A DNA stretch of 64,000 nucleotides from NCBI GenBank assembly GCA_023954415.1, contig JAMLIB010000002.1:62001-126000 (forward strand), in the 5' to 3' direction. Made by a program: the position numbers and the translations under genes. A model generated the notes under the pieces. The model did not search any database. It was not told where the DNA came from and saw only the letters and a program-made list of their open reading frames with translations. This DNA comes from Trueperaceae bacterium (GTDB taxonomy: Bacteria; Deinococcota; Deinococci; Deinococcales; Trueperaceae). Position 1 is the first letter of the stretch, and the number at the start of each line of letters is the position of its first letter. Below are positions 27,469 to 35,140 of the stretch, one piece after another.

Positions 27469-28638
27469 ATGACCAAGGTGATCCCGAGGACCCTCGCAGG
27501 TCCACTACTCGCCGCGGCAGCGCAGTACCCCGTGGTGACGGTCACGGGCCCACGCCAGTCGGGCAAGACGACCCTATGCCGCGCCACGTTCCCCGAGCAC
27601 GCCTACGTGTCACTCGAGCCCCTCGACAACCGGGAGTTCGCCACCCAAGACCCGCGCGGGTTCCTGGCGCAGTTTCAAGGCGGGGTGATACTGGACGAAG
27701 CGCAGCGCACGCCGGAGCTGTTCGGCTACCTGCAAGAGGCCGTCGACGAGACCCCGAGCCCGGGCCGCTTCATCATCTCCGGCTCCGAGAACCTCGCCCT
27801 CACCACGACCGTGAGCCAGTCCCTCGCCGGCCGCACCGCCATGCTGGTCCTCCTCCCCTTCTCGCTCGAGGAGCGCATGCGGACGGATGCGGCCGACGCG
27901 ACGCTCGACGAGGTCCTGTTCCAGGGCGGCTACCCTAGGCCGCTGATCACCGGCATCCCGCATGAGCGCTGGCTGCAGGACTACTTCACCACCTACGTCC
28001 AGCGTGACGTCCGCCAGCTCACCCAGATCAACGACCTCGGCACGTTCACCCGTTTCGTGCGCTTATGTGCCGGCCGCACGGCGCAAGAAGTGAACCTCAG
28101 CCAGCTCGGTTCGGACGCCGGGGTGTCGCACAACACTGCCCGCGCCTGGCTTGGGGTCCTGGAGGCAAGCCACCTGGTGTTCCAACTACCCGCCTGGCAC
28201 GCCAACGTCAGCAAGCGCATCATCAAGCGCCCCAAGCTGCACTTCATAGACACCGGCCTGGCGAGCGCGCTCCTCGGCATCCGCGACCCGCGACAGCTGA
28301 CCACGCACCCCCAGCGCGGGGCGCTCTTCGAGACCTTCGTCGCGAGCGAGGTCCTCAAATGGCATCTCGGACGCGGGCTGCCGGCCGACCTCCACCACTA
28401 CCGGGAAGTGCGTGGCTCCGAGATAGACGTGATCGTCCCTGGTCGGCCGCGTGGGTTCGCTGTCGAGGCGAAGGCGGGGCAGACCGTGCAGTCGGAGTTC
28501 TTCGACCACCTTGCGGACCTGCCCGCGGACGACTGGAGGCGCTGCATCGTCTACGGCGGAGCGGGTCGGCAGGTGCGCGGGGGCGTCGAGGTGCTGCCCT
28601 GGCGTGCGCTGGCAGCCACCGATTGGGCTGCTGACTGA
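27469..28638 (+). CDS. AAA ATPase, DUF4143 family
   Basis: A 389-residue protein of the widespread AAA_14/DUF4143 group. Walker A is GPRQSGKTT near residues 27-35, Walker B is GGVILDEAQRTPELF near 70, and FIISGSENLAL is sensor 1. The DUF4143 part has YVQRDVRQLTQI, SHNTARAWLGVLEASHLVFQLPAW, HFIDTGLASALLG and FETFVASEVLK. The end (GSEIDVIV, GFAVEAKAGQTV) resembles a PD-(D/E)XK nuclease fold. The function of this family is not established. The gene stands alone with a strong, apparently repressible promoter. Its position across from hipA is probably coincidental. Confidence 0.88.
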   Translation: MTKVIPRTLAGPLLAAAAQYPVVTVTGPRQSGKTTLCRATFPEHAYVSLEPLDNREFATQDPRGFLAQFQGGVILDEAQRTPELFGYLQEAVDETPSPGRFIISGSENLALTTTVSQSLAGRTAMLVLLPFSLEERMRTDAADATLDEVLFQGGYPRPLITGIPHERWLQDYFTTYVQRDVRQLTQINDLGTFTRFVRLCAGRTAQEVNLSQLGSDAGVSHNTARAWLGVLEASHLVFQLPAWHANVSKRIIKRPKLHFIDTGLASALLGIRDPRQLTTHPQRGALFETFVASEVLKWHLGRGLPADLHHYREVRGSEIDVIVPGRPRGFAVEAKAGQTVQSEFFDHLADLPADDWRRCIVYGGAGRQVRGGVEVLPWRALAATDWAAD

Positions 28639-28919: not shown

Positions 28920-29441
28920 ATGGAGATCCAGGGCAAGATCCTCCTCACCTACGGCGCACTGGTCGTGCTGACGCTCGCCGTCTTCGTGGTCGTGGCGGCG
29001 TCCTCGCGCGGCGCCCCCGAGCCTTACGCGGACGTGCAGCCGCGCGGCTACCGCGTGAGGCGGGTGTGGTTCTGGTCCCTACTGGCCGTGCTCGTCTTGG
29101 CCTTCGGGGTGTGGGGGAGGCTGACGCCTTACTCGAAGGCTGAGGCCGCCCCCGACGCGATCAGCTTCCCCATCGTCGCGCGGCAGTACGCGTTCGAGAA
29201 CATGCCCGAGGTGGTGCCGTACGGCGTACCCGTGGTGTTCAAGCTGACTTCGATCGACGTCAACCACGGCTTCGCCATCTACGACACGCAGGACCGGATC
29301 GTCGGCCAGGTGCAGGCCATGCCGGGCTACGCGAACGACCTGCACGTCACGTTCACGGAGAAGGGCAAGTACATCGTGCGGTGCCTGGAGTTCTGCGGGA
29401 TCAACCACGCCTTCATGCAGGGCAGCTTCGAGGTGAAGTGA
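28920..29441 (+). CDS. Heme-copper reductase subunit II with CuA site
   Basis: A 173-residue electron-entry subunit of a ba3-type (B-family) or derived reductase. Two hydrophobic segments (about residues 8-27 and 49-66) precede a cupredoxin domain. The CuA ligands are all visible: His116 in DVNHGF, then Cys155, Cys159, His163 and Met166 in CLEFCGINHAFM. The copper centre would take electrons from cytochrome c outside the membrane. The well-studied Thermus ba3 subunit II has one membrane helix and a separate small subunit; here two helices are in one chain. The catalytic subunit gene starts 1 bp after the stop. Confidence 0.9.
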   Translation: MEIQGKILLTYGALVVLTLAVFVVVAASSRGAPEPYADVQPRGYRVRRVWFWSLLAVLVLAFGVWGRLTPYSKAEAAPDAISFPIVARQYAFENMPEVVPYGVPVVFKLTSIDVNHGFAIYDTQDRIVGQVQAMPGYANDLHVTFTEKGKYIVRCLEFCGINHAFMQGSFEVK

Positions 29442-29442
29442 C

Positions 29443-30960
29443 GTGAGCGCCTCCACGAACGACACCACGGCCCGCCGCATCATGGCCCTCTACCTAGCGA
29501 CCGGCCTCGGCCTCGCCGTTTGCCTCATGGTCGTCGGCATCCTCATGCGCATGTCGCAAGCCGGCTGGATCCGCCTCGCCTCGGTCGACTTCTACGCCCT
29601 CATGACGTTGCACGGTGCTGGCATGATCGCCGCCCTCGTGCTGTGCGGCATGGGTGGCATCTGGTACCTCATGCGCCGCGAGATCACGATGTCCGCAAGC
29701 CTCGCCCTGTGGGCATACGGCGTGACGGTCGGCGGCGTGCTCCTCGTCGCCGTCGCCGCCGCGTTCGGCAAGTTCGGGGCGGCCTGGACCTTCCTCTACC
29801 CGCTGCCGTTCCTGAACCCGACCTGGCCCGCCTGGTCGATCGGCGCCTTCCTGATCGGCCTGACACTCATCGTCTTGGGCTGGACGGTCTGGTGCATCCA
29901 GGTCCTGGAGGCCGTGTTGAGGGGCTTCGGCGGCTTCCGCGGCGTACTCGGTTGGGACGCGGTCTTCAGGCCCAAGGCGTTCGCGGCGGCCGGCCGTAAG
30001 CTGCCCCCACCGCAGGTGCTGCCGGCCTTCGTCATCGCCTTCGACGGCCTGCTGGCTGCCACCGCTGCCAGCCTCCTCGGCGTGGCGCTGTTCGTGCATT
30101 GGCTCGACCCGAGCGTGCCCCTCGACGCCCTCTGGGCGAAGAACATCACCTACTTCTTCGGCCACGACCTTGCGAACTTCATCATCTACATGCTCATCGC
30201 GCAGGTCTACGTCGGTCTACCCGCCTACGCGGGGCGCCCGTGGAAGAACTCGGCGGTCCTGACCCTCGGTTGGTGGGGCACCCTCGTGTTCTTGCTCCTC
30301 GCCTTCCCGCACCACCTCTACATGGACTTCGCCCAACCCGTCTGGATCCAGTACCTCGGCCTCGGCGCCTCCTACCTGTCGTCCGTGCCCGTGGCGGTCG
30401 TGACCGTGTTCGGCGGCCTCCTGCTCGTCTGGCGCTCCGGGATGCGCTGGGGGCTCGGATCGCTCTTCATGTACGCGGGGATGGCCGGCTGGATCCTTGG
30501 CGGCATCGGGGCGCTGCTCGACGCGACCATCAACTTCAACGTCCACCTCCACAACACCCTGTGGGTGCCCGCCCACTTCCACACGTACCTGCTCGGCGCG
30601 TCGTTCCTCTTCGCGATCGGCTGGGTCTTCGCCATGCTCGAGGTGCGTAGCCCCGACCCGACGCCACCCGCCATGCGTTGGACCATCGGCGTCACCGTGC
30701 TGGGCGGCATCGCGCTCCTCGTGGGCACGTTCTACCTGGCCGGCGCGGCCAGCGTGCCCCGCCGTTACGACGTGGAGCCAGACCCCGGCCCACTCCTCGC
30801 CGGCTGGGGCTCCGTCGGCGCCATCATCCTCGTGCTCGGGCTACTCATCGCGACCCTCGAGGGCGCGCGGCTCTGGCGCGGGCTGCGGCGTGCGAAGACG
30901 AGCGTCGAGTGGCCGTGGTCACCGGACGCGGCGGCACGACCGGAAGGCGGTGCACGGTGA
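29443..30960 (+). CDS. Heme-copper reductase catalytic subunit (ba3-like, lacks the active-site tyrosine)
   Basis: A 505-residue polytopic protein starting with GTG. All six heme and CuB histidines can be placed: His57 (LHGAGM), His241 (FFGHDLANF), His290-His291 (FPHH), and His378 and His380 (WVPAHFH). In oxygen reductases of this family the CuB histidine is followed by Pro-Val-x-Tyr, with the tyrosine four residues on cross-linked to it. Here that position is Asn245, and Asp242 follows the histidine. Loss of this tyrosine is known in heme-copper nitric oxide reductases, including forms that keep a CuA subunit II. The protein may therefore reduce nitric oxide rather than oxygen. The 12-13 helices, partner genes and haem ligands are otherwise as in ba3 oxidases. 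Confidence 0.85.
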   Translation: MSASTNDTTARRIMALYLATGLGLAVCLMVVGILMRMSQAGWIRLASVDFYALMTLHGAGMIAALVLCGMGGIWYLMRREITMSASLALWAYGVTVGGVLLVAVAAAFGKFGAAWTFLYPLPFLNPTWPAWSIGAFLIGLTLIVLGWTVWCIQVLEAVLRGFGGFRGVLGWDAVFRPKAFAAAGRKLPPPQVLPAFVIAFDGLLAATAASLLGVALFVHWLDPSVPLDALWAKNITYFFGHDLANFIIYMLIAQVYVGLPAYAGRPWKNSAVLTLGWWGTLVFLLLAFPHHLYMDFAQPVWIQYLGLGASYLSSVPVAVVTVFGGLLLVWRSGMRWGLGSLFMYAGMAGWILGGIGALLDATINFNVHLHNTLWVPAHFHTYLLGASFLFAIGWVFAMLEVRSPDPTPPAMRWTIGVTVLGGIALLVGTFYLAGAASVPRRYDVEPDPGPLLAGWGSVGAIILVLGLLIATLEGARLWRGLRRAKTSVEWPWSPDAAARPEGGAR

Positions 30961-31919
30961 GCGGCACCCGGAAGACCAACGCCGGCAAGAAGGGCGCCAA
31001 GGCGCCCCGACTGTCGCCCTTCGCGACGAACACCATCGTGCTGGCCCTGATCGGCTACTTCTGCATCGTCGTCGCGTGGCTGCACCTTGGCCTCCCCTCC
31101 CCGGATCACAGCATCAAGGACCACCACCTCCAGCACCTGTGGTTCCTGATCGGCGGCGGGCTGTGGGGTATCGCGCTCGCCCGTTGGCTGGCGCGCCGCC
31201 GCCCCGTCCGCGACCCGCAAGGCGCTTGGCTCTTCCCAGCCCTGCTCGCGCCCATGACGGCGATGTTCCTCATGTGGCCGTCGGCCTACCCGTACGTCGA
31301 GGCCCGCCCGCTCCTCCACGCGTCCATGCACCTCGTGTTCGTGGCGCTGGGGGCGCTGACGACGTTCGCCGGCTACCAGTACACGCGCGTGGTCGGCTGG
31401 TTGTTGGGGGGCTCGCTCGCCGTCATGGCGTGGCTCGCCGCCTTCTTCTTCGGCGTCACCGCCAAGCCGAACCCCGCTGTCACCGCCATCCTCGACGCGC
31501 GCCCGGCACCGGCACCCACGGCCTCGGCTGAGGGTCAGAAGGTCTTCGACCAGATCTGCGCCGCCTGCCACATGACGACGGGCGCCGGCCTGCCCGGGGC
31601 GTTCCCGCCCCTGGCGGGGCACCTCCCCGACCTCCTGGCGGCGTCGGGTGGGCGCGACTACGTCGTGCGCGTCGTGCTCAACGGCCTGCAGGGCACCATC
31701 TCGATCGGCGGGGTGACTTACAACAGCGTCATGCCCCCTTGGCAACAGCTGAGCGACCAGGAGATCGCCGACGCGCTCAACTACGCCGCCACGGCCTGGG
31801 GCAACGAGTTCCCCGAGGGAGCGCAGGCGTTCGAAGCTGGCGAGGTAGCGGCGGCGCGCGGCGAGCCGCTCGGCCCGCAACAGGTCCACGAGTTGCGGGG
31901 GCAGCTCGAGTTACCCTGA
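30957..31919 (+). CDS. Membrane-anchored c-type cytochrome of the reductase operon
   Basis: A GTG overlapping the catalytic-subunit stop by 4 bp gives 320 residues; longer upstream readings lie inside the previous gene. The N-terminal part (to about residue 170) has several hydrophobic segments (NTIVLALIGYFCIVVAWL, LLAPMTAMFLMWP, LVFVALGALTTFAGY, GWLLGGSLAVMAWLAAFFFG). The C-terminal part is a class I cytochrome c: haem-binding CAACH, then PPLAGHLPDLL and the distal methionine in NSVMPPWQQLSD. It should carry electrons to CuA of subunit II. A polytopic membrane domain joined to cytochrome c is unusual beside simple ba3 oxidases and strengthens the idea of a specialised reductase. Confidence 0.85.
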   Translation: MSGTRKTNAGKKGAKAPRLSPFATNTIVLALIGYFCIVVAWLHLGLPSPDHSIKDHHLQHLWFLIGGGLWGIALARWLARRRPVRDPQGAWLFPALLAPMTAMFLMWPSAYPYVEARPLLHASMHLVFVALGALTTFAGYQYTRVVGWLLGGSLAVMAWLAAFFFGVTAKPNPAVTAILDARPAPAPTASAEGQKVFDQICAACHMTTGAGLPGAFPPLAGHLPDLLAASGGRDYVVRVVLNGLQGTISIGGVTYNSVMPPWQQLSDQEIADALNYAATAWGNEFPEGAQAFEAGEVAAARGEPLGPQQVHELRGQLELP

Positions 31920-31966: not shown

Positions 31967-34900
31967 ATGCTCCTCCGCACCCTCGGCGGTGTGGCGCTGC
32001 CGGGTGCCTCGTTCCGTCGTCTGAAACCGCTCCTGATGCTGGCCTACCTCGCCTTGGAAGGGCCGAAGGAACGTCGCTACCTGGCCGAGCTGTTCTGGCC
32101 GGACGCGGCTGACCCAAGGCAGAGCCTAGCCGTGGCCGTTTGGCAGTTGCGGCGCGCCTCGCCCGGAGTCGTGCGCGTGGACGACCAAGTGATCGCGGCC
32201 GTCGTCGAGTGCGACGCCACCTTGCTTCGTGAGGCGGCTATCGATGGCGAGTGGCGCGACGTGGTGGACCTGTACGGCGGGCCGTTCCTCGATGGTGTCG
32301 ACGTCGACGCCGGCAACGCCGAGCTGGAGGAGTGGCTCTACGGCACGCGAGAAGCGCTGTCCGTGCTGACCCAGAACGCGCTGATCGCGCTCGCAGAGGA
32401 GCACCTGTCGGTCGGCGACCTGCGAGGCGCAGCGCGGCTTAGCGAACGAGCCGCGACGGTCGTGCGTGACCTGGCCACCGCTCAGCCGGAGTCACTGTCT
32501 CGCCTCCATGCGTTGCTGGTCGCGACCGGCAACCCGCGGTCCGTGGCGGTGGCGAAGGAGGCCGCGGCCTTCGGCGTCACGTTGTCCGAGCACGCCGACC
32601 GGGCCGCCGCCGCTACCGACGTCCCGCTGCCCGAGCACAACTTGCCCAACCTCATCGCCCCGTTCGTGGGTCGCGACCAGGAGCTGCGCGACCTGGAGGC
32701 GTTGCTCGAGCGCGGGGAGCGGTTGGTGACCATCACTGGGCTCGGAGGGATGGGCAAGACGCGTCTCGCGATGGCCCTCGCTAGGCGGATGGTGAGTGGA
32801 CGCCGGTTCACTCGCGTCTACTTCGTTCCGTGCGGCGTCGAGAGGCCGGATCAGGTGCTGACCCAGGTCGCCGCGGTGACGGCCCCGCGAACCGGAGCGC
32901 CCGCGCTAACAAGCCTGCGGCGGACGTTCGGTGACGAGAGCGCTTTACTTGTGCTGGACGACCTCGACCAGGTAGCCGGTGACGCTCAACAGCTCGGCGA
33001 GCTGCTCGAGGCCTGCCCTCTCGTCAGACTGGTGGTCACCTCGCGCGAGCCGCTGGGCTTGACTGCGGAGTCCCTCTACCCGCTGGGCGGCCTCCCCCTG
33101 CCTGGAAGCGCGGCCGAAGCGCTCGCAGGCACGGGAGAGACGAGCGGTCTGGACCTATACGTCCTCACCGCTCGCCGCTTCGACCCCCGTTTCACCCTAG
33201 AGCAAGCGAACGCGAGGTTGGTGCTCGACATCTGCAGGCGCCTGGCCGGCGCGCCGCTCGGGATCGAGTTGGCAGCTTCGCTGTCCTCCGTGATATCGCC
33301 TGAGGAGCTGGAACGCGAGCTGGAGGCGGACCTCGACACGCTGGTCAGCGTCAGACCCACCACCAACCCGCGGCACACCAGCCTGCGCGTCGTGTTCGAG
33401 CGCTCCTGGAGCCTCTTGAGCGACGCCGAGCGTGGCGCGCTGTCGGGTTGCTCCGTCTTCCAGGGCGGCTTCACGCGCGTAGCGGCCGCTGCCGTGCTGC
33501 AAATGGACGTGCGGCTGCTCACCGCGCTCCTCGACAGGTCGCTCGTGTGGCGTGCGGGAGGGAGGTACGACTTGCATCCGCTCGTGAAGCAGTACGCGGG
33601 CGAGAAGCTGAAGGAGCGGCCGGACGCCGACGAGCTGCGAGCGCGCCACGCGGAGCACTTCTGCGGCCTCGTGGAGTCGAAGAGCCGCTTCGCCTTGAGA
33701 GCCGGTCAAAGCGCGGCGTTCGACGAGCTGGACCGGGATCATGCGAACGTACGGGCAGCGTGGGATTGGGCCGGGAAGGCCGGGCGCCATGACGTGCTAG
33801 AGCGGATGTTACCCATGTTGGGCAGCTACCTCGCTGACCGCCGGCCCTCGGACGAGCGTATCCGGACGGTTGACGCCGCTCTGGGGCGCGTGGACCCCGA
33901 CTCGGCGTTGACGGCGCGCCTACTGCTGGAGAGAGGGCAGTTCTTGACGTACGTTGACCCCTCCGAGTCACGCAAGACCCTGGTGCAAGCGCTGCTCCTC
34001 GCCCGTAGACACCTTGGCGAGCGTCGCGCGGGGCCGTGGCTCTATGCCTTGGGTCGCACGCTCATGCACCTTGGCGACTTGCCTGGCGCGCGGAGCGCCT
34101 ACCGTGAAGCCGCGGAGCAGTTGGCGGGCAGCGCTGATGAGCAGCTGCTCGGTGGCTGCCTCTCGAACCTGGCGATGACCAGTACCGACCCGAGGGAGAT
34201 GGAGCGTCTGTTCACCGAGGCCATCTCGGTCTGCCGACGCACGGGTAACGTCTCCTATCTCGTCAAGGTGCTGCTCAACCTCGGCGGCACGCTCGTGGAC
34301 GCGCACGGCGACTACGCGGGCGCGTTAGCGCTCTTGCGTGAGGCACTGGCCTTGGAGCGAGCCGAGATCGGCCGGCCACAGCTCTTGATCTACCTGGGTT
34401 GCGTCTGCGCGCACCATCTCGCGACGCTGGGCGACCTGGAGGCCGCGGAGCAGCAACTGGCAGACGTCAGGGACCTGACCGCCCCACGGGTGCCGTGGGA
34501 CGTCGCGCCGTGGATGCTAGCGATGCCGAGCAACTGGGCGCGGGTCTTCATCCACTACGCCCGCGGCGAGGAGGACCTGGTCCGCTCGGTCGGTGCACAG
34601 GTCCAGGACGAGACCGTCTGGACACTCCTGGCGTGGATGGCGCTCGACGAAGGCGACACTGCCGCGGCGGCGCCATATCTGCACAGCCTGGTCGAGCTCT
34701 CCAAGGCCCCTTGCGACGCCCGGACCGGGTTGAGGTTGAGGGCGTCGGCCATCCTGCTGAGCGCCAGGAGCGAGGCGCTCGAAGCGGCCTCCTCCCTCCA
34801 CGAGCTTGAGGGGAATGGGTCGAACCCCGGCCTGCCTCACCTGCTCGAGGCGCTCGAGATCATCGCTGCGTCCAACCTGGTACCCCTGGCGTTCGAAGCG

Positions 34901-35140
34901 TTCATCGTGGCGCACGCTATCGCTCCGGACGTGGTTGGGAGGGAGTGGCTCGAGCTGGCGGCCTCGCAAACGCGCGCGCCCATGCACGCGCGGCGGCGGG
35001 CAGGCAGCTTGTTGGCGGCGTGGCCGGCGGGCGAGCGCATGCCGCCCTCGTCACCACCCGTGTCTGCGGGTGTGCCCCTCACGTCAGAAGCCGTGGTGGA
35101 GGCGGCGCGAGACCTGATGCGGCGGCTGTCGCCTGCTTAG
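31967..35140 (+). CDS. SARP/BTAD-type regulator with NB-ARC ATPase and TPR repeats
   Basis: A 1057-residue AfsR-like regulator. I chose the ATG after the -10 box; upstream in-frame starts lie inside the cytochrome gene. The N-terminal 60 residues (LKPLLMLAYLALEGPKERRYLAELFWPD) form the winged-helix part. A BTAD domain follows to about 190 (VVDLYGGPFLDG, LEEWLYGTREAL). The ATPase has Walker A TGLGGMGKTRL near 257, Walker B LLVLDDLDQV near 327 and TSREPLGL. A winged helix and many TPR-like pairs extend to about 1000. Such STAND proteins act as signal-responsive transcription activators. The target is not evident; it follows the reductase operon by 47 bp and could control it or the neighbouring transport gene. 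Confidence 0.85.
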   Translation: MLLRTLGGVALPGASFRRLKPLLMLAYLALEGPKERRYLAELFWPDAADPRQSLAVAVWQLRRASPGVVRVDDQVIAAVVECDATLLREAAIDGEWRDVVDLYGGPFLDGVDVDAGNAELEEWLYGTREALSVLTQNALIALAEEHLSVGDLRGAARLSERAATVVRDLATAQPESLSRLHALLVATGNPRSVAVAKEAAAFGVTLSEHADRAAAATDVPLPEHNLPNLIAPFVGRDQELRDLEALLERGERLVTITGLGGMGKTRLAMALARRMVSGRRFTRVYFVPCGVERPDQVLTQVAAVTAPRTGAPALTSLRRTFGDESALLVLDDLDQVAGDAQQLGELLEACPLVRLVVTSREPLGLTAESLYPLGGLPLPGSAAEALAGTGETSGLDLYVLTARRFDPRFTLEQANARLVLDICRRLAGAPLGIELAASLSSVISPEELERELEADLDTLVSVRPTTNPRHTSLRVVFERSWSLLSDAERGALSGCSVFQGGFTRVAAAAVLQMDVRLLTALLDRSLVWRAGGRYDLHPLVKQYAGEKLKERPDADELRARHAEHFCGLVESKSRFALRAGQSAAFDELDRDHANVRAAWDWAGKAGRHDVLERMLPMLGSYLADRRPSDERIRTVDAALGRVDPDSALTARLLLERGQFLTYVDPSESRKTLVQALLLARRHLGERRAGPWLYALGRTLMHLGDLPGARSAYREAAEQLAGSADEQLLGGCLSNLAMTSTDPREMERLFTEAISVCRRTGNVSYLVKVLLNLGGTLVDAHGDYAGALALLREALALERAEIGRPQLLIYLGCVCAHHLATLGDLEAAEQQLADVRDLTAPRVPWDVAPWMLAMPSNWARVFIHYARGEEDLVRSVGAQVQDETVWTLLAWMALDEGDTAAAAPYLHSLVELSKAPCDARTGLRLRASAILLSARSEALEAASSLHELEGNGSNPGLPHLLEALEIIAASNLVPLAFEAFIVAHAIAPDVVGREWLELAASQTRAPMHARRRAGSLLAAWPAGERMPPSSPPVSAGVPLTSEAVVEAARDLMRRLSPA

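What the first reader, a model, noticed from the sequence alone, without database searches (positions are those of the whole stretch)
29443..30960. ba3-like catalytic subunit lacking the active-site tyrosine: possible CuA-type NO reductase
All six histidine ligands are present, but at four residues after the CuB ligand His241, where oxygen reductases have the cross-linked tyrosine, there is Asn245, and Asp242 replaces the usual proline. Heme-copper proteins without this tyrosine are generally NO reductases, and some with CuA subunit II derived from oxidase families are known. The operon would then be involved in NO detoxification or respiration, although routine annotation would call it cytochrome c oxidase.
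Basis: partly seen in the sequence, partly recalled or inferred. Interest (0 to 1): 0.75.

Follow-up and report, generated by a model that had tools for sequence, protein, structure and literature searches.

The report
CuA nitric oxide reductase (sNOR) operon
A gene that routine annotation would call a cytochrome oxidase lacks the tyrosine needed to reduce oxygen and belongs to a recognised but biochemically unproven family of nitric oxide reductases (sNOR), here in a denitrifying relative of Thermus and with its electron-donor cytochrome apparently fused to the complex.

Summary
Observation confirmed. The 505-aa subunit I at 29443-30960 keeps all six heme/CuB histidines (H57, H241, H290, H291, H378, H380). 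It has Asn245 where B-family oxidases have the cross-linked Tyr, and Asp242 in place of Pro. Asn is present in all 86 homologues aligned, across many phyla; Asp242 is a Trueperaceae peculiarity. No tyrosine from another helix was found to substitute, and the K-type proton path is broken.

Interpretation largely supported, and it can be named: this is sNOR, the B-type, CuA-bearing, Asn-type NO reductase family of Hemp & Gennis. It clusters (100/99) with the Ruegeria (Silicibacter) pomeroyi protein and shares the 12-TM subunit I, two-TM CuA subunit II and 4-TM third protein described for the Bacillus type II enzyme. The genome also encodes NarG, NirK, a canonical cNOR and NosZ. In 39 Trueperaceae genomes, all six carriers have NirK and NosZ; none of the other 33 has both.

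New here: the third gene fuses the 4-TM protein to a cytochrome highly similar to Thermus c552, the donor of ba3 oxidase, suggesting a tethered electron donor.

So: a new variant of a known, still unassayed family. NO versus O2 activity is inferred, not shown.

The parts
28920..29441 (+). Subunit II: two N-terminal TM helices and a CuA cupredoxin domain (ligand set H116, C155, C159, H163, M166)
   Evidence: PF00116 37.1 bits, cut-off 22; the CxxxCxxxHxxM motif is kept in all 88 adjacent subunit II matches, one of them truncated at a contig end so that its upstream His is missing
29443..30960 (+). Subunit I: heme-copper catalytic subunit, 12 TM helices in the model, Asn245 in place of the active-site Tyr
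30163..30177 (+). Codons H241-D242-L243-A244-N245 (CuB ligand and the Tyr-to-Asn position)
30957..31919 (+). Subunit III: 320-aa protein, GTG start overlapping the subunit I stop by 4 bases; 4-TM domain with invariant His (H56, H57, H60, H121, H125)
31512..31916 (+). C-terminal cytochrome c domain of subunit III (CAACH heme motif), close relative of Thermus cytochrome c552
   Evidence: phmmer E 9.5e-36 to 2fwl over residues 4-132 of 135; Foldseek top hits 1dt1, 1qyz, 1c52

Best explanation
The three genes at 28920-31919 encode a membrane-bound nitric oxide reductase of the sNOR type. Proposed route: electrons arrive on a c552-like cytochrome tethered to the 4-TM third subunit, pass to CuA in subunit II, then to the low-spin heme (H57/H380), and then to the high-spin heme (H378) and CuB (H241, H290, H291). 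There two NO are coupled to N2O + H2O. With Asn245 instead of the redox-active, His-linked Tyr, the enzyme lacks the residue that supplies the fourth electron and the proton for O-O bond cleavage, which two-electron NO reduction does not need. The K-type proton path is interrupted (Y244eq to I252, S309eq to V317, T312eq missing), so proton pumping is unlikely. In the host it would remove NO made by NirK, beside a canonical cNOR. Shown here: residues, gene order, subunit features, clade, genome context. Inferred: substrate, electron route, lack of pumping, expression.
For: Asn in 86/86 homologues with all ligands kept. Published table: sNOR active-site residue N, predicted 0 proton channels, in Betaproteobacteria, Silicibacter, Deinococcus, Geobacillus (PMC8756737 Table A4). 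Heylen & Keltjens: the purified Bacillus azotoformans qCuANOR has Asn at the Tyr position, and a related type II has Asn, 12 TMH, a two-TMH subunit II and a 4-5-TMH third protein (PMC3475470), all matched here. Clade 100/99 with the R. pomeroyi protein, Tyr-bearing ba3 outside. R. pomeroyi operon: Rrf2 regulator, SU II, SU I, SCO, hypothetical protein, formate/nitrite transporter, cytochrome c; T. roseum also has a formate/nitrite transporter. Own genome: NarG 1403 bits, NirK 356 bits, NosZ 902 bits, all over cut-off, plus cNOR. Trueperaceae: carriers 6/6 with NirK+NosZ, others 0/33; by genus 2/2 versus 0/15, p = 0.007. One carrier (G010) has no cNOR/qNOR match, so sNOR is its only candidate NOR. 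K-path alignment. c552 domain.
Against: NO reductase activity of an sNOR has not been shown with purified protein in any paper I could read; the N. europaea study proposes a high-affinity oxidase role because of up-regulation under O2 limitation (PMC6967387). The genome already has a canonical cNOR, so sNOR is not the missing step there. In a sample of 14 other carrier genomes only 3 pass the NirK and 5 the clade II NosZ cut-off (NirS and clade I NosZ not searched). No NO-responsive regulator or FNR-type box was found at the window operon. Sequences of NorY, bNOR, eNOR and gNOR could not be fetched for the tree.
Confidence: 0.8

Rival explanations
1. It is a microaerobic, high-affinity oxygen reductase that works without the cross-linked tyrosine, or with another tyrosine such as Tyr249.
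For: B-type fold and CuA donor are those of oxidases. N. europaea sNOR genes rise 2.7- to 10.8-fold under O2 limitation (PMC6967387). Tyr249 is invariant.
Against: Asn is invariant in 86/86. Tyr249 is at H+8, a Leu position in ba3, too far along the helix for the His-Tyr bond by ideal-helix geometry (inference). The cbb3-type Tyr position is V/I/L/T. The host has a Tyr-bearing A-type oxidase for O2. The purified Bacillus qCuANOR with Asn reduces NO (PMC3475470).
Confidence: 0.1
2. It is an NO-reducing enzyme whose main task is protection from NO under low oxygen rather than respiration by denitrification.
For: A canonical cNOR exists in the same genome; many carrier genomes outside Trueperaceae lack NirK and clade II NosZ matches over cut-off.
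Against: Strict co-occurrence with NirK and NosZ in Trueperaceae; one carrier without cNOR. This rival shares the chemistry of the best explanation and differs only in physiological role.
Confidence: 0.25
3. It is a bNOR (Bacillus qCuANOR type I) or eNOR rather than sNOR.
For: bNOR also has Asn and CuA (PMC3475470, PMC8756737).
Against: eNOR has Gln (PMC8756737 Table A4). Type I has a 13-TM subunit I, a one-TM subunit II and a 46-aa extra peptide; here 12 TM and two TM. bNOR has so far been found only in Bacillota (PMC11388526).
Confidence: 0.07

Closest known systems
sNOR (NorSY of Nitrosomonas; Silicibacter/Ruegeria pomeroyi, Geobacillus, Deinococcus members)
   Same: Asn at the Tyr position, all six His, adjacent CuA subunit; R. 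pomeroyi protein in the same 100/99 clade
   Different: No SCO gene seen in this operon; third subunit carries a c552-like domain; Asp242 at CuB His+1
Bacillus azotoformans qCuANOR type II (BAZO_04705-04710)
   Same: Asn, 12 TMH subunit I, two-TMH subunit II, 4-5-TMH third protein (PMC3475470)
   Different: There the third protein is described without a cytochrome and SenC is in the cluster
Bacillus azotoformans qCuANOR type I / bNOR (purified NO reductase)
   Same: Asn at the Tyr position, CuA subunit II, B-type origin
   Different: 13-TMH subunit I, one-TMH subunit II, 46-aa peptide; Bacillota only so far (PMC11388526)
Thermus thermophilus ba3 cytochrome c oxidase with cytochrome c552 as donor
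   Same: Fold, CuA, ligands; c552 is the known partner of its CuA domain (reference in PMC8780969)
   Different: Has the cross-linked Tyr and an intact K-path; here Asn and a broken path, and the c552-like domain is tethered

Membership tests
sNOR | Asn replaces the cross-linking Tyr four residues after the CuB His on helix VI | tested here: met
   N245, 86/86 homologues
sNOR | Six His ligands for the hemes and CuB kept (unlike gNOR with Asp) | tested here: met
sNOR | Adjacent CuA cupredoxin subunit II | tested here: met
   28920-29441; 88 of 88 loci with a detectable SU II keep the CxxxCxxxHxxM motif
sNOR | No complete proton channel | tested here: met
   Profile alignment: Y237, Y244, S309 and T312 equivalents lost, Y248 and T315 kept; alignment-based only, the subunit II entry residue was not tested
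sNOR | Phylogenetic grouping with published sNOR | tested here: met
   R. pomeroyi (Silicibacter, listed among sNOR carriers in PMC8756737) lies inside the 100/99 clade; NorY of Nitrosomonas was not available, so the test has one named anchor
sNOR | NO reductase activity | not testable with these tools
   needs biochemistry
eNOR | Gln at the Tyr position | tested here: not met
   Asn in all (PMC8756737 Table A4)
bNOR (qCuANOR type I) | 13-TMH subunit I and one-TMH subunit II | tested here: not met
   12 TM helices in the model; two hydrophobic helices in SU II by sequence
B-family oxygen reductase (ba3) | His-Tyr cross-link tyrosine on helix VI | tested here: not met
cNOR/qNOR | NorB-type catalytic subunit with Glu at the active site, no CuA | tested here: not met
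   Separate clade; the genome's true NorB is on contig C19

The most novel reading that the evidence does not exclude
The complex is an oxygen reductase, or a dual O2/NO enzyme, that works with Asn in place of the redox tyrosine and is fed by a covalently tethered c552; this would break the rule that the tyrosine is needed for O2 reduction.
Probability: 0.07. Interest if true: 0.8.

Novelty: new variant of a known kind. Interest (0 to 1): 0.42.

Why it matters
sNOR enzymes are hidden in databases as cytochrome oxidases (the R. pomeroyi and T. roseum proteins are labelled cbb3-type oxidase), so NO-to-N2O capacity is under-counted. The published survey found no norBC in Trueperaceae and no narGHI in Truepera (PMC10989939), whereas this genome encodes NarG, NirK, cNOR, sNOR and NosZ. 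A version with its donor cytochrome built in would be a handy single complex for the assay the family still lacks.

Tried and rejected
Missing-NOR idea: rejected for this genome because a canonical cNOR was found; it holds only for G010. Replacement Tyr from helix VI (Y249) or helix VII (position 284): no support; side-chain distances could not be measured because model coordinates are not exposed. FNR-type box upstream: the number of matches in the window equals chance and none lies just upstream of the operon. Cross-phylum co-occurrence with NirK and clade II NosZ is mixed. Foldseek/VIA rank A-type oxidases first, which reports the shared fold and not the subfamily. The 4-TM domain had no clear Pfam family or PDB fold.

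Full report
Observation. The ORF at 29443-30960 (+) is intact, 505 aa, GTG start. It matches COX1 (PF00115) at 151.6 bits but falls far below the NCBIfam cut-offs for oxidase subunits. H57, H241, H290, H291, H378 and H380 are present; the helix VI motif is FFGH-D-L-A-N-FIIY. A profile-profile alignment with seven Tyr-bearing ba3 oxidases (hhalign E 9.8e-34, probability 99.9) pairs H241 with the CuB His, D242 with Pro, N245 with the cross-linking Tyr, I252 with the Y244 equivalent, Y256 with Y248, V317 with S309, a gap with T312, and T321 with T315 (Thermus residue numbers from general knowledge). So the tyrosine is gone and most of the K-path with it.

Is it more than chance? A scan of 85,000 genomes with the Trueperaceae alignment found 305 relatives; the best 80 were fetched, from Deinococcota, Eremiobacterota, Planctomycetota, Limisphaerales, Methylomirabilota, Bacillota, Actinomycetota, Dormiibacterota, Bacteroidota, Ignavibacteriota and Pseudomonadota. 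With the Trueperaceae copies, Asn245 is invariant in 86/86, Tyr249 too, and position 284 (the cbb3-type Tyr site) is V, I, L or T in 42/42. Asp242 is local: mostly Thr elsewhere.

Operon. Subunit II (28920-29441) has two N-terminal hydrophobic helices and the CuA motif. It ends one base before subunit I starts. Subunit III (30957-31919) overlaps the subunit I stop by four bases. Its N-terminal half is a 4-TM domain with invariant His at 56, 57, 60, 121 and 125. Relatives of this domain follow subunit I in the Eremiobacterota, Methylomirabilota, Planctomycetota and Bacillota loci, and in three Thermoleophilia-type MAG loci (L067, L073, L075) it is fused to the C-terminus of subunit I (for L067, E 4e-12), which argues that it belongs to the complex. 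Its C-terminal 135 aa are a cytochrome c strikingly like Thermus thermophilus c552 (E 9.5e-36 over nearly the full length; Foldseek confirms). Thermus c552 is known to dock on the CuA domain of ba3 oxidase (Muresanu et al. 2006, cited in PMC8780969). c552-like domains are frequent in Trueperaceae (2-10 per genome), and several lie close to a CuA domain and a ba3-type subunit I in open frames of about 315 aa that would hold both, for example G024:C47 and G012:C1, so tethering this cytochrome looks like a habit of the family. All seven Trueperaceae copies of the sNOR operon carry the fusion (plus the window itself); Planctomycetota-group copies L038 and L042 carry a different, weaker cytochrome c fused at the same place.

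Phylogeny. A tree of 64 proteins puts the 48 Asn-type proteins in one group (100/99), including R. pomeroyi (formerly Silicibacter) and Thermomicrobium roseum, apart from Tyr-bearing ba3 (100/100), A-type, cbb3 and cNOR. The long branches between the large groups make their mutual order uncertain; the groups themselves are stable. The published summary of NOR types gives sNOR: Asn, no proton channel, found in Betaproteobacteria, Silicibacter, Deinococcus, Geobacillus; eNOR: Gln; gNOR: Asp; CuANOR: Asn (PMC8756737 Table A4). Heylen & Keltjens describe the type II cluster of B. azotoformans with Asn, 12 TMH, a two-TMH subunit II and a 4-5-TMH third protein (PMC3475470); the AlphaFold model here (pLDDT 82.6, pTM 0.87) has 12 long TM helices. 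The same paper assigns the purified NO-reducing qCuANOR of B. azotoformans to a gene with Asn at this position, which is the best experimental precedent for NO reduction by an Asn/CuA enzyme.

Genome context. The window genome has one A-type oxidase, a canonical cNOR (best match 4xyd NorB, E 6e-59, with a C-terminal extension) and this sNOR, plus NarG, NirK and clade II NosZ. Across 39 Trueperaceae genomes, sNOR is in six (G019 twice); all six have NirK and NosZ over the curated cut-offs, none of the other 33 has both. Counting genera, 2/2 against 0/15, p = 0.007; genomes of one genus are not independent, so the genus count is the fair one. G018, of the same genus, has NirK but neither sNOR nor NosZ. 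G010 has no cNOR or qNOR match, so there sNOR is the only candidate NO reductase. The classification of cNOR in the other family members rests on score and length, only the window genome's copy being checked in sequence. In 14 carriers from other phyla the link is looser (NirK 3, clade II NosZ 5 over cut-off).

Function. Best reading: NO reduction to N2O at a heme-CuB site that lacks the oxidase tyrosine, fed by a built-in c552. Shown: sequence, gene order, clade, co-occurrence. Inferred: substrate, electron path, no pumping. Against it stands the lack of any direct sNOR assay in the papers read and the suggestion of an oxidase role in N. europaea (PMC6967387).

Novelty. The family is known and had been noted in Deinococcus; the member in Trueperaceae, the tethered c552-like domain and Asp242 are additions for which I found no description in the papers I could search. 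The published comparison of Deinococcota reported no norBC in Trueperaceae and narGHI absent from Truepera (PMC10989939); newer MAGs such as this one have them.

Noticed in passing
G000:C2:200603-204253, C7:129671-130567, C19:10411-11685, C3:155930-157735 (outside the window): Genes for full denitrification (NarG, NirK, cNOR, clade II NosZ) in a Trueperaceae genome, contrary to the published absence of norBC in that family and of narGHI in Truepera.
   Followed up: partly
window 31512-31916 and the same place in L006-L010, L027: Cytochrome c552-like domain fused to the 4-TM third subunit in all Trueperaceae copies; a different cytochrome c is fused at the same point in Planctomycetota-group L038 and L042.
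   Followed up: partly
window 30957-31511; A3 columns for H56, H57, H60, H121, H125: Invariant histidine cluster in the 4-TM domain of the third subunit, possibly a heme or copper site (no SCO gene in this operon); no clear Pfam or PDB match.
   Followed up: partly
L067, L073, L075: Subunit I of sNOR fused at its C-terminus to the 4-TM domain in Solirubrobacterales/Thermoleophilia MAGs.
   Followed up: partly
L147:5031-6710 (-): The genome's NorB carries about 100 extra residues at the C-terminus with further hydrophobic stretches.
   Followed up: no
G019 contigs C62 and C8: Two copies of the sNOR operon in one genome, subunit I 74% and 66% identical to the window's.
   Followed up: no
L194 (NC_006569.1) and L195 (NC_011961.1): RefSeq labels the R. 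pomeroyi and T. roseum sNOR catalytic subunits 'cbb3-type cytochrome c oxidase subunit I'; both operons hold a formate/nitrite transporter and the former a divergent Rrf2-family regulator.
   Followed up: partly
window 27469-28638 and about 31968-35140: Flanks: AAA_14/DUF4143 ATPase upstream and a large AAA/TPR (STAND-like) regulator downstream; neither is known to be tied to NO.
   Followed up: partly
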